From NCBI GenBank assembly GCA_023897205.1, contig JAHWDD010000001.1, positions 2,790,001-2,854,000 on the forward strand: a stretch of DNA of 64,000 nt, written 5' to 3'. Shown here piece by piece: positions 49,502 through 55,448 of the stretch; positions within the stretch are counted from its first letter, which is position 1; every line of letters starts with the position of its first letter. The DNA comes from Exophiala sp. HKRS030 (Eukaryota > Ascomycota > Eurotiomycetes > Chaetothyriales > Herpotrichiellaceae). The position numbers were made by a program, and so were the translations under genes. The notes beneath the pieces are model-generated. The model had not been told where the DNA came from, made no database searches, and was given only the letters and a program-made list of their open reading frames with translations.

Positions 49502-51175
49502 CTATGGCCTGATGTCTAGGCGCTGTTCGTTCATGGTCTCAATAGGGCATACAATGCTTTGGAAAAATCTAACTAGTCGCTCCACTTCGTCCGCTCCGTC
49601 TTCTTCACCATACGCCCTTCCGACAAGCAACTTCACCGTCGCTTGCTGATATGAGTTACCCATTCGGTGAGCCAAATCATCACGAAGTTGATTTTTCAAC
49701 AAACGATCCCGATTCTCCGCCGCCGTATTGGTCGACTTGAGGAATGCTTCCACTGGCCGCCAAAACCCTATCTCGAGTAGCACAATGCCCAAGCTGTACG
49801 CATCAAATGCCACGCGATATCCTTGTCGTGGAGAGGCAACAAGATCCGGGTGTTGGTACGCAGCCTCAGGAATTGTGGTCGACACGGGTAGCGATAGTGC
49901 CCCTGGAGCGTCCTCGCGAGAGTAGCCAAAGCCGACGACGAAATGATCTTCGAAGAATGATTCCTCGTTGTGACTGCCTCCCTGTACATCAAAGAGCTGG
50001 CGGATAAATACAACATTTTCGCTACGAAAGTCGCGGTGCAACCACTTGGCGGCGTGGAGCTGCAAGATCGAGTTGGCCAAGCTGCCCGCTAAGCGAAAAC
50101 GTTCGTGGAGAGTAGGCAATGGTGTTTTTGAATAGCTGCGCGACTGGAGGAGCTCGTGTAGGCTTACAATCCCGGGTGCGATGGCGTTGTTGGAAGGTTG
50201 GGATGGAAGAGAAAACACAACACCAAATCTTTCGTTGACTTGGTCATGGCAATGCCCTATACAATCGAGCACGCGGAAATTTGGAGGCTTTGGAGCACGA
50301 CTTAGCAGCACAGCGAGGCTTTCAGTACGGCTTGCTAGAAGGGAAACGGTCTCTGGAGGCTCTCTTTTGTGCGACCGCCATTCGATGAGAACGGGCTTGC
50401 CGTCTAGAAAGCCGGAGCTCCTCTGCTTCAGCTCGTTGCTTGGTGGAACAGTCAATCTCGACATCCCAAGAGCGGGTGCGCCGGATGTATCAAGGGTATT
50501 CCTTGCGTGGAGCATCAAGGCGTGGAAGCGCTGGTCTGCAGATCTTGTAAGACCGACATATGCATCCTGTGCTGCCTTGCGTATGACTTGCAGCGTACTC
50601 ATGTTGTCTATAGAAGTTGACCGCAGACTCATCATGGCGAAATCGCGGTGAAAGTTTGCCTGTTGACCTTCTCGAAGCAGCGAGTTTAGTCCGTTGTTCA
50701 AAGTCCGGAGGTCGTGAACTATCTTCTCAAACTTTTCACGATCAAAGAGCCACCGCAGTGCGAGCTTTGCGGCGGTCGTCCTCCGTCTTCCCCAGGACAG
50801 TTGCTTGGAGGACAACTCTGGTCCGCCAGTGATGTACATGGTTTTAGTTCGATCCTCATAACCTTCATTTGCAGGTGCATCTGCCCTAAGCCCATACCTG
50901 GTGTTCAGCGTGGCTGCATCCTGAGTGATGATCTCAACTTGGCGAAGGGTGCTGACGACGGTATCGAGTTGACTAGTAGGAATGAGACAAGTATCATCGA
51001 ATAAACCAGCGTTTCGACTCCAAAGCACGAGTCTCTTTTCTTCAATCTCAAGACAGCAAGCAATTGTGGCAGCGTCATTACCCTGATCGCGAATGGCTCG
51101 AAGGGCTCCATATCCCTGTACGCAGCTTGAGAAGAGCGACAGCACGCCAATCGCCAGGCTGGCAGCTTCAGCCAT
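49502..51175 (-). CDS. HeLo-domain protein with C-terminal pseudokinase
   Basis: HeLo domains form the membrane-acting part of fungal cell-death proteins such as HET-S. ATG 51175 gives MAEAASLAIGVLSLFSSCVQGYGAL, the standard HeLo start; an upstream in-frame start at 51307 is less likely. The HeLo domain covers about residues 1-200 (AAKLALRWLFDREKFEKIVHDLRTLNNGLNSLL at its end). A kinase-like domain follows from about residue 260 to 550. It has HRDFRSENVVF at about 380 but GFG instead of DFG at about 415 and no clear beta-3 Lys (LIEWRSHK), so it is probably inactive. YQHPDLVASPRQGYRVAFDAYSLGIVLLEIGFW is typical of this HeLo-kinase group. 557 residues, single exon, intact. It is divergent, 401 bp from a kinase-ankyrin gene. 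Confidence 0.85.
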   Translation of the reverse strand: MAEAASLAIGVLSLFSSCVQGYGALRAIRDQGNDAATIACCLEIEEKRLVLWSRNAGLFDDTCLIPTSQLDTVVSTLRQVEIITQDAATLNTRYGLRADAPANEGYEDRTKTMYITGGPELSSKQLSWGRRRTTAAKLALRWLFDREKFEKIVHDLRTLNNGLNSLLREGQQANFHRDFAMMSLRSTSIDNMSTLQVIRKAAQDAYVGLTRSADQRFHALMLHARNTLDTSGAPALGMSRLTVPPSNELKQRSSGFLDGKPVLIEWRSHKREPPETVSLLASRTESLAVLLSRAPKPPNFRVLDCIGHCHDQVNERFGVVFSLPSQPSNNAIAPGIVSLHELLQSRSYSKTPLPTLHERFRLAGSLANSILQLHAAKWLHRDFRSENVVFIRQLFDVQGGSHNEESFFEDHFVVGFGYSREDAPGALSLPVSTTIPEAAYQHPDLVASPRQGYRVAFDAYSLGIVLLEIGFWRPVEAFLKSTNTAAENRDRLLKNQLRDDLAHRMGNSYQQATVKLLVGRAYGEEDGADEVERLVRFFQSIVCPIETMNEQRLDIRP

Positions 51176-51576
51176 GAGGTTTCCAACCGAGTTTCCTGCT
51201 GTGAATTTTAGGCACAGGCTGGCTACTATCAATGAAGATAGTCCAAACCCAAGTCTCAAGAGCTGAAGTGCAGATGACCAGTTGAACAAAGCAGATAAGG
51301 CTGGCAAGCCACAGGATCAAAGCCACATACTAGCTCGTTGAGGCGTCTTGCACCTCGTATTTCCAAGAATAGGGGCAATTCATCATTCCCAACCTCTCGA
51401 TTTCTGTCGTGCGAAGTTTACTGGGAACCTCAATCAATATACCTGGCGCTTGCGATCAATACGTTTGAATTGTTTGACGTATCTGAGATTAAGGAGCCGA
51501 TGATGCACAATGCAATCGGCATTGCATTGAGCTCACATAGACCTCCACCCTTTTCAGCATACTGCTGGCGACCGTC
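51176..51576. promoter_or_regulatory. Divergent promoter region of the HeLo-pseudokinase and kinase-ankyrin genes
   Basis: 401 bp between the two start codons, so both promoters must lie here or overlap the leaders. No known binding site identified. Confidence 0.45.
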
Positions 51577-54500
51577 ATGTCACTGTCCTCATCGCAGAGG
51601 TTATTTTCATCCTTGAGACAAGATTCGGACAGTTCTGAGCTTTCGACGGCGCCATCATGTACGCCCATCGATGTTGCACTTACACATCTGATTGTCATGG
51701 GGGTCTGGATGCACAATACAATTCCCGAGATCTCCAATGAAACTGTCCTTTCTAGTACACCTCTAGCTTTTTCATCAGGGTCGGCCTCAAAATCGCAGCC
51801 TATTGCCCAAGGAGTAACATCCTTGGTATCGGGACAGGCAAACACAATACTCATCAACGGCTCAACTACATCCAGCATCAGTGCTGGTTTGAGTGGATTT
51901 CTTTCATCTCTTGAATCTTCTCCACCAGATGGGTCAGATTCTGTTTCACAAACCGAAGGAATCGTCGTGGAGAAGAGGGTCCGGACATGGCACGGCGAAG
52001 GCCAGCATTCCGGGATGGCTATTCTTAGGGAGCTGAAAGTCTTGACATCACCTTCCATACGTCGTCATCCAAATATTGTTAAGCTCATGGCCTATTCGTG
52101 GGAAGATACTGCGATTGACAGTCCCCGGATTTCACCCGTGCTTTCCTTTGAGAGAGCCATTGGCAGCCTTGCACACATCCAATCTCAAGAACTTCTAAAT
52201 TATACTGAAAAAAGGGACGTAATGCTTGGAATTTCCCGAGGTCTCTCTGTCATTCATGCCGCTGGAGTCATACACGGGGATCTGAAGTCTGAAAATGTCT
52301 TATTATTTCGAAACAACAATGCTTATACTGCAAAAATTTGCGATTTCGGCTTCAGCATCTTTCTTGCGGATGTAAAAGGTAATCAAGTGCGTTTACATGG
52401 TGGAACTGCGCTTTACATGGCACCAGAATGCCTTACGGCAGATATGGTGTCTATCAGCGAGCTCAAGAAAACTGACTGTTACTCGCTGGGACTGTTATTC
52501 TGGAGGGTGCTTCTCGATGGCCATAGTCCTTTTGATATTCCCGGACTCACCAAAAATCGTAGTCATGCAGAGCTCAAGCGAGATCAGAAACCAACACTTC
52601 TTGCCATTGCTCAATTGTCCATACTTCTGATTGAGGACTTGAAGCCACAATATGAACAGATCTTGCAGCTACTCGGCGCAACAATCCGAAAGAATCCAGC
52701 TCATCGGAGTCTTCAAGCCGTTCTCACTATACTTGACGACCGTGGTATCACAGAAGTCAGCAGCAGTCTAGTGAGCATCAGCCCTAGCGAAGTATTACGG
52801 GACCAACGGTTCGACGTTCGCAATGTTCCCTTTTGGTTACGGCAAAAGGCTCTGCCACATCTTCAAGCAGGGTCAAAAACTATTGAGGAAGCTATCGGTG
52901 ACTTGACGCCAGGACTTTGTCCGATTTCCAGGACTTTGATAGACTACAGTCTCGGTGATGGAGGGATGAGCAGCGACGATGATCCAGAGGCCGTCTTGCG
53001 TCTCCTAGCACATTGCGCAGAAAGGGGTAACATTGCAATCCAGGCCATTATTGTCAGGATGTTCGACTATTTCGGGATTGTGATGCCAGATGCCGTGCAG
53101 AGACGCGCGAATGAGTACCTCGCCAATGCCGTTGCAAACGGGTCTCACACTGCAGCCTTGGACTACTCAACTTACTGGCAGAGGTTAAAGTACCAGACTG
53201 AAGAAGAGCCAGAGTCGTTTCTGATCAACCTAAGAACACGGTTCTCAGGCGGCATTGGTGTCGAGATCGACAGCCGTATGATTCTTCTCCAAGACACCTC
53301 TCTGCTCCAGTCTCGACTCTCCAACGGCATGAGCATGACCTTGCTGAAAGCAGCGTACGGACTGAATCGCGGCAACAACCTGATACACGGCGCAGCTATG
53401 CTGAATCTGTGCGATACCGGAGAGATGCTGATTCGAAAGTTCAACGTCAACGTGAATGAGCAGAACGAACACGGAGACACGCCTTTACTGCTCGCCTGCC
53501 GGCACGGTCACTTGCAGATGATCACCAAACTCCTGACGAACAAGGCACGGCCCGACATTGCGAACAAACTTGGTGAGACACCGCTGCACTGGGCTCTGAA
53601 TGTACCGGACAAGCCTTATGAAATGGGTGGGGTTCCTATCCGAAGCTGCCTCGAGCTGGTCATCATGATGCTTGTGACCGAACATGCAAATATCAACTCA
53701 CCAAAAGCACAGCTTCTGTCCTCGGTCGGGGAATATTTCACACGTTTGAAGTGGGCTGCGGGAACGCCTTTGCATCGCGCCGTATCTCGTCGGAATCTGG
53801 CTGCTGCTCGATATCTGCTGCAAAAAGGGGCAGATCCACTCGCCACAGACTGGCAAACGGAAGCGGAATCCTTGACACCGTTGGACATTGCAATGAACCA
53901 CCATAATGCACCAATGCTGAAACTGCTGCTTGAAGCATGTCCACACTATGATGTCAACAATGTCGATGAATTCGGCACTACTCTGTTCAGTAGAGCCATC
54001 TCTACCGCATCTGTCATCCAGATGATTATCATTCATGGGAAGTAATACCCTCAAGCCATTGCCGACACCATAGACGTCCTCATCTCCCATGGCCTCAACC
54101 TCGACATTGTCCAAGCCACAAGCGGCATGGGCCCGCCTACGCCGTTTAAGCAACAGAAACTTTCTGGTCCACGGGACAAGTACTACACATTCGATGCTCT
54201 CTACCTTGCGACATAGTTTGAAAAGTATGCATGGGTGCAGTACTTGCTGGACTCACCAAAATGCGCAGTGGCCATGTCCCGCTGCATCAACCGTCCCAAC
54301 GGCTTCATGGGCCGTACACCGATACATGCCTCGATCGAAGACGGGCAGCGGTCCATCTTCCGGGCCCTTCTCGCTGCTGGAGCCGACCCAACAGCACGGT
54401 TCAATCTATACGGCGCTCGGCTGGCAGCCCAGCATGGCCTCACGAATGAGATGGGCTGTCTGCATCTCGCAGTGGCTCAGGGAGACCCAGATCTTTTCTT

Positions 54501-55448
54501 CACGAAGCGTCTCCTCGGCTACGACATGGATCTAGAGCAGGGAGACATTCAAGGCACTACGGCACTGTGCGCGGCGGTCCTCGAGGGCCGGTACCACATA
54601 GCCACAGCCTTGCTGGAGGCAGGAGCCAACATAGACAAATTGATGGGTGCTCCAAAAGCCCCAGCACATCGCAGGCAAACAGTGCTGGAAAAGGTCATCT
54701 CTCTAGGCGCAAATGACACGCGGCGTTTGCTGTACCTGCTAGGATGTGAGACTGACCCTGTACGTGACGATGATAACAGTACTCACCAAAGAAGCCCGCC
54801 AGTCCCCTGGCGCTCACGTCCTGGTCCGCCGGCATCAATGCATTTTGGCGACACCACTGCTGTCCACTTCCTCCTCGAGACCAACGCCACACGTACAGAC
54901 TCGACTTTCGCCGCATGTCTGCGGGTTGTCCTCGACGCCTGTCAAGCCCCGACACCACCACAACCACAACTAGAACCACAACCAGAACCACTGGCTTGGG
55001 CACCACCACCACCAGCAGCAACAGCAACAGCAGCGCCAGCTCACCAATCAACCAACTCGCGCACCCACAGCGTCTCGCCGCAGGCGACGCAGACCCAAAC
55101 TTGGCGCTGGCACCGCTGCATCTAGCCGCCAAGCACGGCAACGCCGTCGCGGTGGAGATGCTGCTCGACGCCGGCGCAGATCCGCACGTCGAGATGGCGC
55201 CGGGCTTGCAGCCGTTGTTGCTTGCGAAGGAGGGGTTGCGCCGTCTACGGCAACGGCCTAGTGCTGCTACTGCGGGCGTCGCTGGGTTCCGAGAGGCCAT
55301 ACGTCTGCTCAGTGGTGGTGGTGATGGTGATGGTAGTGGTGGTGGCGGGGAGGCAGTCCAAAGCCACGACGACGGGCAGAAGCTGGGGCTGGGGATGGAT
55401 GTCGTCCAGCGCTTGTCGGCGCGGCTGATGGCTTTGACTGCTGATTAG
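51577..55448 (+). pseudogene. Protein kinase with ankyrin repeats, two in-frame stops and a C-terminal frame change
   Basis: From ATG 51577 comes a kinase domain (about 125-400): VVEKRVR (candidate Lys133), ILRELKVL, HGDLKSENVLL (233-243), CDFGFS (DFG 256-258) and MAPE (281-284), so all catalytic motifs are present. Ankyrin repeats follow (GDTPLLLACRHGHLQMITKLL, GTPLHRAVSRRNLAAARYLLQKGADP and more). The same frame is stopped by TAA at 54043 and TAG at 54214, yet the DNA between and after them still encodes ankyrin-like sequence (DTIDVLISHGLNLD, WVQYLLDSP, ALLEAGANID). The last repeats (APLHLAAKHGNAVAVEMLLDAGADP, to 55448) are in the next frame, reachable by one added C, for instance at 54947-54950. 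Both stops fit single C-to-T changes at CA (CAA to TAA, CAG to TAG). It may be a decaying gene, or a truncated kinase with one short ankyrin array that ends at 54045. Confidence 0.75.

What the first reader, a model, noticed from the sequence alone, without database searches (positions are those of the whole stretch)
49502..55448. Divergent pair: HeLo-pseudokinase beside an active-type kinase with ankyrin repeats
The HeLo domain is a membrane-acting cell-death module; its C-terminal kinase-like domain has lost the DFG Asp and the beta-3 Lys. Only 401 bp away, a divergent gene encodes a kinase with intact HGD, DFG and APE motifs plus an ankyrin array, which could act as a sensor. A paired executioner/regulator arrangement parallels known fungal NLR-HET-S gene pairs. 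Such a HeLo-pseudokinase with kinase-ankyrin pair is not one I know as described.
Basis: partly seen in the sequence, partly recalled or inferred. Interest (0 to 1): 0.8.

Follow-up and report, generated by a model that had tools for sequence, protein, structure and literature searches.

The report
Fungal killer-pseudokinase and kinase gene pairs
This fungus carries a repeated two-gene unit in which a predicted membrane-attacking protein with a dead kinase domain sits head to head with a gene for an active-type kinase joined to ankyrin repeats, an arrangement that resembles the kinase switch of necroptosis in animals.

Summary
Window 49502-51175 (-) encodes an intact 557-aa HeLo-pseudokinase. 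Across 401 bp lies a divergent active-type kinase with ankyrin repeats, but that gene is broken here: two in-frame stops and a frameshift end it at 822 aa, where two database relatives run 1164 and 1166 aa. The pairing is not an accident. In the same 59.8 Mb genome a pseudokinase query hits 12 loci; 8 of 12 have a hit of the kinase-ankyrin query within 5 kb, all 8 divergent, start codons 232-881 bp apart. All seven loci with HeLo plus pseudokinase are paired. In all eight the pseudokinase lacks the beta-3 Lys and DFG Asp while the partner keeps its catalytic residues. In Ilyonectria destructans both orthologues list a single contig of 409,888 bp. Best explanation: an executioner/activator module in which the kinase-ankyrin protein phosphorylates or otherwise switches the pseudokinase and frees the HeLo domain, as RIPK3 does MLKL. 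Phosphorylation and cell death are inferred, not shown. A 2025 review's figure legend mentions HELL domains joined to kinase/pseudokinase domains; ten searches found no paper describing the pair.

The parts
49502..51175 (-). HeLo-pseudokinase gene, 557 aa, one open frame, intact
   Evidence: ORF list; Pfam HeLo + DUF7580 + sub-threshold Pkinase; start chosen by comparison with P0001 and P0004
50624..51154 (-). HeLo domain (PF14479); the gene's first codons encode a hydrophobic helix
   Evidence: profile A2 matches the solved HET-s HeLo domain 2wvo at E 6.9e-10; residues 1-19 are the most hydrophobic 19-residue stretch of the protein
49511..50491 (-). Pseudokinase domain: beta-3 Lys replaced by E, DFG Asp replaced by G, HRD kept
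51176..51576 (.). 401-bp shared upstream region between the two start codons
51577..54045 (+). Kinase-ankyrin gene, part before the first in-frame stop (822 aa): kinase domain, linker, first ankyrin repeats
51949..52710 (+). Protein kinase domain with HGD, DFG, APE (active type)
   Evidence: Pfam PF00069 99 bits, residues 125-378; motif table
54043..54045 (+). First in-frame stop (TAA), where relatives read on
54214..54216 (+). Second in-frame stop (TAG), where relatives read on
54217..55125 (+). Remnant of the ankyrin array after the stops, same frame
   Evidence: 56% identity to P0023 over 279 columns; Pfam ankyrin for 54235-55122
54915..55448 (+). Last ankyrin repeats and C-terminus in another frame (frameshift)
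   Evidence: 42% identity to P0023 residues 1052-1162; Pfam ankyrin

Best explanation
The locus is one copy of a multi-copy, divergently transcribed two-gene module. One gene makes a HeLo-pseudokinase, a membrane-acting cell-death executioner held inactive by its pseudokinase domain. The other makes an active-type kinase with an ankyrin array that senses a trigger. On sensing, the kinase binds and probably phosphorylates the pseudokinase domain; the HeLo bundle and its hydrophobic first helix are released, go to the plasma membrane and kill the cell, in self/non-self recognition or defence. The shared upstream region probably co-regulates the two genes. Shown: domains, catalytic residues, pairing, orientation, repetition. 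Inferred: sensing, binding, phosphorylation, release, death, co-regulation. In the window the executioner is intact and the kinase partner is truncated, so this copy has probably lost its partner's function, or works with a short partner.
For: Eight of 12 pseudokinase loci have a hit of the kinase-ankyrin query (17 loci) within 5 kb; chance about 2e-18 if loci were placed independently at random. 8 of 8 are divergent with 232-881 bp between start codons. The eight pseudokinase domains are only 24-35% identical to each other and the kinases 21-34%, so the layout has outlasted deep divergence. Dead/active split in 8 of 8. HeLo recognised in 7 of 8. Ankyrin repeats over a Pfam cut-off beside the kinase in all eight. 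The first helix region is the most hydrophobic stretch of the whole protein in 6 of 8 copies. Ilyonectria destructans has both orthologues on a contig of the same length. One further locus has a kinase domain and the pseudokinase in a single frame. Solved-structure profile hits are the HET-s HeLo domain, then kinases with MLKL among the first; the window kinase's best solved match is RIPK1.
Against: No experiment. The distance matrices of the two partners are not correlated beyond chance (r 0.26, 9356 of 40320 permutations as good). The kinase-ankyrin gene in the window is broken. In the other seven pairs kinase and ankyrin lie in separate frames 30-550 bp apart, presumed exons of one gene but not shown to be. 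Homologues of the HeLo-pseudokinase in Aspergillus and Penicillium had no partner of this type found. The C10 copy has no recognisable HeLo domain. The kinase-like domains are not specifically close to MLKL or RIPK: margins are small and a profile of seven partner kinases ranks EGFR and LRRK2 above RIPK1.
Confidence: 0.6

Rival explanations
1. Poison and antidote: the HeLo-pseudokinase is toxic by default and the linked kinase-ankyrin protein keeps it in check.
For: Tight linkage and a short shared upstream region in 8 of 8 pairs suit a poison-antidote pair as well as an activator pair.
Against: In the window the kinase-ankyrin gene is truncated while the HeLo-pseudokinase stays intact, which a strict antidote would not allow; but the 822-aa product still has its whole kinase domain and might suffice.
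Confidence: 0.17
2. A signalling pair without cell death: the HeLo-pseudokinase is a membrane-bound scaffold or decoy and the kinase-ankyrin its client; the HeLo fold serves for oligomerisation only.
For: I saw no toxicity data for any member; the C10 copy has no recognisable HeLo domain but is still paired.
Against: The hydrophobic first helix is kept in most copies; PMC12881547 section 18 (read) ties the N-terminal helix of HET-S to membrane targeting.
Confidence: 0.15
3. Hitch-hiking: one ancestral neighbour pair was copied by segmental duplication and the linkage has no meaning.
For: All eight pairs share one layout, as copies of one ancestor would; the partners' distance matrices are not correlated.
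Against: Both partners, their orientation and their opposite catalytic states survived at 21-35% identity on eight loci of eight contigs; nine control loci with only HeLo or only DUF7580 lie 66 kb or more from any listed kinase hit or on contigs without one.
Confidence: 0.05

Closest known systems
RIPK3-MLKL of mammalian necroptosis
   Same: An active kinase and an executioner made of a helical bundle plus a pseudokinase domain. MLKL is among the first kinase hits of the solved-structure profiles (second, first), and Foldseek ranks two MLKL entries first and second by a small margin.
   Different: Here the genes are linked and divergent; the bundle is a HeLo domain; the partner carries ankyrin repeats (an architecture that I recall for RIPK4 and ANKK1); no motif shared by the partners' ends was found. 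Specific kinship with MLKL or RIPK is not shown.
NWD2/HET-S and related NLR/HeLo amyloid gene pairs
   Same: A HeLo executioner gene next to the gene of its activator, which carries repeats; linkage kept across species (PMC3321046, passages seen).
   Different: The partner is a kinase, with no NLR domain in the frames scanned; no shared terminal motif; orientation is constant here (8 of 8 divergent) while PMC3321046 states that relative orientation is not conserved in the het-S type clusters.
Fungal gasdermin/protease two-gene clusters
   Same: Linked pore-former and activating enzyme that often carries WD40, ANK or TPR repeats (PMC12881547 section 20, read).
   Different: Activation there is by proteolysis; here the enzyme is a kinase and the putative pore-former carries a kinase-like domain.
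HELL proteins with kinase or pseudokinase domain
   Same: Mentioned in the legend of Fig. 6 of PMC12881547 as reminiscent of MLKL; helical bundle plus kinase-like domain.
   Different: The legend names no partner kinase gene. The figure itself is not held, so it may show more.

Membership tests
HeLo domain (PF14479) | Sequence match to the family profile and to the solved HET-s HeLo domain | tested here: met
   99.8 bits against a cut-off of 23.2; 2wvo at E 6.9e-10 and 8.9e-14
HeLo domain (PF14479) | Membrane permeabilisation and cell killing | not testable with these tools
   Only the hydrophobicity of the first helix was checked
MLKL-type executioner | N-terminal helical bundle plus C-terminal pseudokinase | tested here: met
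   Pfam; beta-3 Lys and DFG Asp absent in 8 of 8 paralogues and 19 of 19 rows of alignment A2. The bundle itself is placed by sequence; its model is of low confidence
MLKL-type executioner | Pseudokinase closer to MLKL than to other kinases | tested here: inconclusive
   MLKL first and second in Foldseek with E 1.5e-07 against 1.8e-07 for PAK1 at rank 3; VIA-align rows are tied kinases
MLKL-type executioner | Activation by phosphorylation by a dedicated kinase | not testable with these tools
   A linked active-type kinase is present
RIPK-type activator kinase | Kinase domain closest to RIPK | tested here: inconclusive
   RIPK1 entries are the best matches of the window copy; a profile of seven of the eight partner kinases ranks EGFR and LRRK2 entries above RIPK1
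NWD2/HET-S pair | Partner is an NLR (NACHT or NB-ARC) | tested here: not met
   The window partner and the paralogous partner frames scanned give kinase and ankyrin families, no NACHT or NB-ARC
NWD2/HET-S pair | Shared amyloid motif between activator N-terminus and executioner terminus | tested here: not met
   First 80 residues of the kinase against first and last 60 of the pseudokinase, 16 comparisons: in the best case 60 of 500 shuffles were as good. A very short motif could be missed
NWD2/HET-S pair | Executioner and activator genes adjacent | tested here: met

The most novel reading that the evidence does not exclude
Filamentous fungi have a kinase-driven, amyloid-independent necroptosis-like pathway: families of linked kinase-ankyrin sensors and HeLo-pseudokinase executioners, expanded to about eight separate sensor/executioner pairs in one genome, arisen either from a common ancestor of the animal RIPK-MLKL axis or by convergence.
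Probability: 0.45. Interest if true: 0.92.

Novelty: new variant of a known kind. Interest (0 to 1): 0.8.

Why it matters
Fungal HeLo executioners are known to be switched on by amyloid templating from NLRs (PMC12881547). A dedicated linked kinase facing a HeLo-pseudokinase would be a second way to switch them and a close fungal counterpart of RIPK3-MLKL. It would make the question of how far necroptosis and fungal necroptotic-like death are conserved (named as future work at the end of section 18 of PMC12881547) directly testable with eight natural pairs in one genome.

Tried and rejected
Reading 51577-55448 as one gene: rejected, two in-frame stops and a frameshift. Explaining the stops by one intron: the donor- and acceptor-like ends near them (54042 and 54216) would remove 175 bp, a stretch that matches the relatives, and shift the frame (worked out by hand). 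Explaining them by RIP: dinucleotide indices are not RIP-like (thresholds recalled). An assembly error is not excluded.

Amyloid link between partners: no similarity of termini beyond shuffles. Correlation of distances between partners: not significant for pseudokinase against kinase (r 0.26; 9356 of 40320 permutations as good) or HeLo against kinase (r 0.19; 10850 of 40320), while HeLo against pseudokinase of the same protein gives r 0.79 (11 of 40320). With all copies about equally far apart the test has little power.

In one search only 55 of 128 candidates were scored, so its list is a lower bound. In one search twenty of 64 papers were listed and most were not opened.

Full report
What is in the window. 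The minus strand 49502-51175 holds an uninterrupted 557-codon frame with a HeLo domain (PF14479, 99.8 bits) followed by a kinase-like region that Pfam calls DUF7580 (34.3 bits) and, below cut-off, protein kinase. Across 401 bp the plus strand from 51577 encodes a protein kinase domain (99 bits), a linker and ankyrin repeats. The flanking genes look unrelated: HMGL-like and enoyl-CoA hydratase/isomerase frames on one side, a PPR protein on the other.

The kinase-ankyrin gene is broken in this copy. The frame ends at 54043-54045, and the same frame meets a second stop at 54214-54216; the last ankyrin repeats and the C-terminus lie in another frame. The database relatives P0023 and P0024 run 1164 and 1166 aa, and four pieces of the window match P0023 in order (60%, 52%, 56%, 42% identity). 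The truncated 822-aa product keeps the kinase domain, the linker and the first ankyrin repeats. Whether it is made is unknown; an assembly error is not excluded.

Family of the HeLo-pseudokinase. A protein search gave 22 relatives at E <= 0.001. P0001-P0018 all list both HeLo and DUF7580 in the precomputed Pfam column and were aligned with the window protein (19 rows, 30-75% identical to it). P0019 and P0020 (DUF7580 without HeLo) and P0021 and P0022 (kinases without either) were left out. Named sources are Ilyonectria, Aspergillus and Penicillium; the rest are unnamed. None of the 19 rows has Lys at the beta-3 position or Asp at the DFG position; the HRD Asp is present in the window protein and P0001 only.

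Repetition in the same genome. The window lies in a 59.8 Mb genome of 50 contigs. The pseudokinase query hits 12 distinct loci at E <= 0.001 and the kinase-ankyrin query 17 distinct loci at E <= 1e-6 (55 of 128 candidates scored; loci as grouped). Eight pseudokinase loci have a kinase-query hit within 5 kb: C1 (the window), C2, C3 at 3.66 Mb, C5, C7, C8, C10 at 2.06 Mb and C30. With independent random placement the chance is about 2e-18; duplicated pairs are not independent, so this measures retention of linkage rather than eight separate origins. The five best kinase loci after the window's own (C2, C3, C8, C7, C30) are all in pairs; nine of the 17, with weaker matches, are not near a pseudokinase locus, and whether they carry ankyrin repeats was not checked.

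Anatomy of the pairs. Reading the DNA around them shows in each case a pseudokinase gene and, divergently, a kinase frame. In the window kinase and ankyrin repeats share one frame, as in P0023-P0025; in the other seven loci the ankyrin frame follows the kinase frame on the same strand after 30-550 bp, presumably one spliced gene, which is not shown. The C3 and C7 pseudokinase genes lie in three and two frames, presumably exons. Start-to-start gaps are 401, 739, 421, 507, 881, 232, 618 and 519 bp in the order of loci given above, with start codons chosen by eye. The eight loci are on eight contigs.

Which loci are not paired. Of the other four pseudokinase loci, C3 at 4.94 Mb, C2 at 5.93 Mb and C3 at 5.27 Mb have no kinase-query hit within 1.2 Mb, no HeLo hit in the genome-wide HeLo search and none in the frames scanned (one of the two tandem frames at the C2 locus was scanned). 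The fourth, C10 at 2.08 Mb, is a single 824-aa open frame with a kinase domain at residues 8-195 (72.4 bits) and the pseudokinase at about 516-812, tail to tail with kinase frames followed by a TPR frame. The fusion hints that kinase and pseudokinase act together. Nine control loci, four with HeLo but no pseudokinase hit and five with DUF7580 but no hit of the pseudokinase query, are 66 kb or more from any listed kinase hit, or on contigs with none.

Dead and active partners. In the alignment of the eight pseudokinases the beta-3 position is E in seven and N in one, and the DFG Asp position is G in all eight. In the eight kinases the catalytic Asp, the following Lys and Asn, the DFG Asp and the PE of APE are present in all; the alpha-C Glu is Asp in C7 and C8. 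A Lys stands at or next to the aligned beta-3 column in seven rows; the C3 row is a gap there and its Lys was read by eye.

HeLo in the copies. A leave-one-out profile recognises the N-terminal part of seven of eight (hmmsearch E 1.7e-8 or better against a single sequence; weakest is C5, hhalign probability 67%) but not of C10 (E 0.004, probability 0.4%), so C10 is a pair with an unclassified N-terminus. The first residues hold the most hydrophobic 19-residue stretch of the whole protein in six of eight copies, C10 among them; C2 and C8 are the exceptions.

Other genomes. Ilyonectria destructans P0004 (HeLo-pseudokinase, 56%) and P0025 (kinase-ankyrin, 57%, marked partial) each list one contig, of 409,888 bp. 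I infer that this is the same contig; the distance between the genes is not shown. The kinase-ankyrin type of the window was otherwise found only in Thelonectria and unnamed sources. The Aspergillus and Penicillium HeLo-pseudokinases may have a partner too divergent to find, or none.

Mechanism. [quoted passage not shown] Here the C-terminal domain of the putative executioner is a pseudokinase and the linked gene supplies an active-type kinase with a repeat array. The simplest reading is a phosphorylation or docking switch. No shared terminal motif between partners was found, so amyloid templating is not supported. The intact executioner beside a truncated kinase in the window argues against a strict antidote role.

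Literature. Ten searches gave no description of a HeLo-pseudokinase/kinase-ankyrin gene pair. I read sections 18 and 20 and passages of PMC12881547 and passages of PMC10197012, PMC5485727, PMC4986451, PMC9815663, PMC3321046, PMC12258605, PMC7889193 and PMC7885112; other papers were seen as listings only. The legend of Fig. [quoted passage not shown] the figure is not held. The library has only open-licence papers, so this is not proof of novelty.

Noticed in passing
G000 C10:2077746-2080217 (L033 5746-8217 +): A single 824-aa frame joins a kinase domain (residues 8-195) to the pseudokinase (about 516-812); it is tail to tail with kinase frames followed by a TPR frame (C10:2080389-2083727).
   Followed up: partly
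G000 C7:4056266-4060027 (L023 2266-6027 +): A NACHT/NPHP3_N protein gene ends about 2.5 kb from the 3' end of the C7 HeLo-pseudokinase gene, with other open frames between; whether it belongs to that cluster is not known.
   Followed up: no
G000 C2:5931978-5936372: Two tandem frames that match the pseudokinase profile, without a HeLo hit in the genome-wide search and without a kinase-ankyrin neighbour; one of the two was scanned with Pfam.
   Followed up: partly
window 54900-55100: Low-complexity CCA/ACA-rich stretch around the frameshift in the 3' part of the kinase-ankyrin gene.
   Followed up: partly
G000 C3:5268793-5272320: A 1176-aa frame with a DUF7580 region at residues 319-518 and about 650 further residues without a Pfam match at E <= 0.01.
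   Followed up: no
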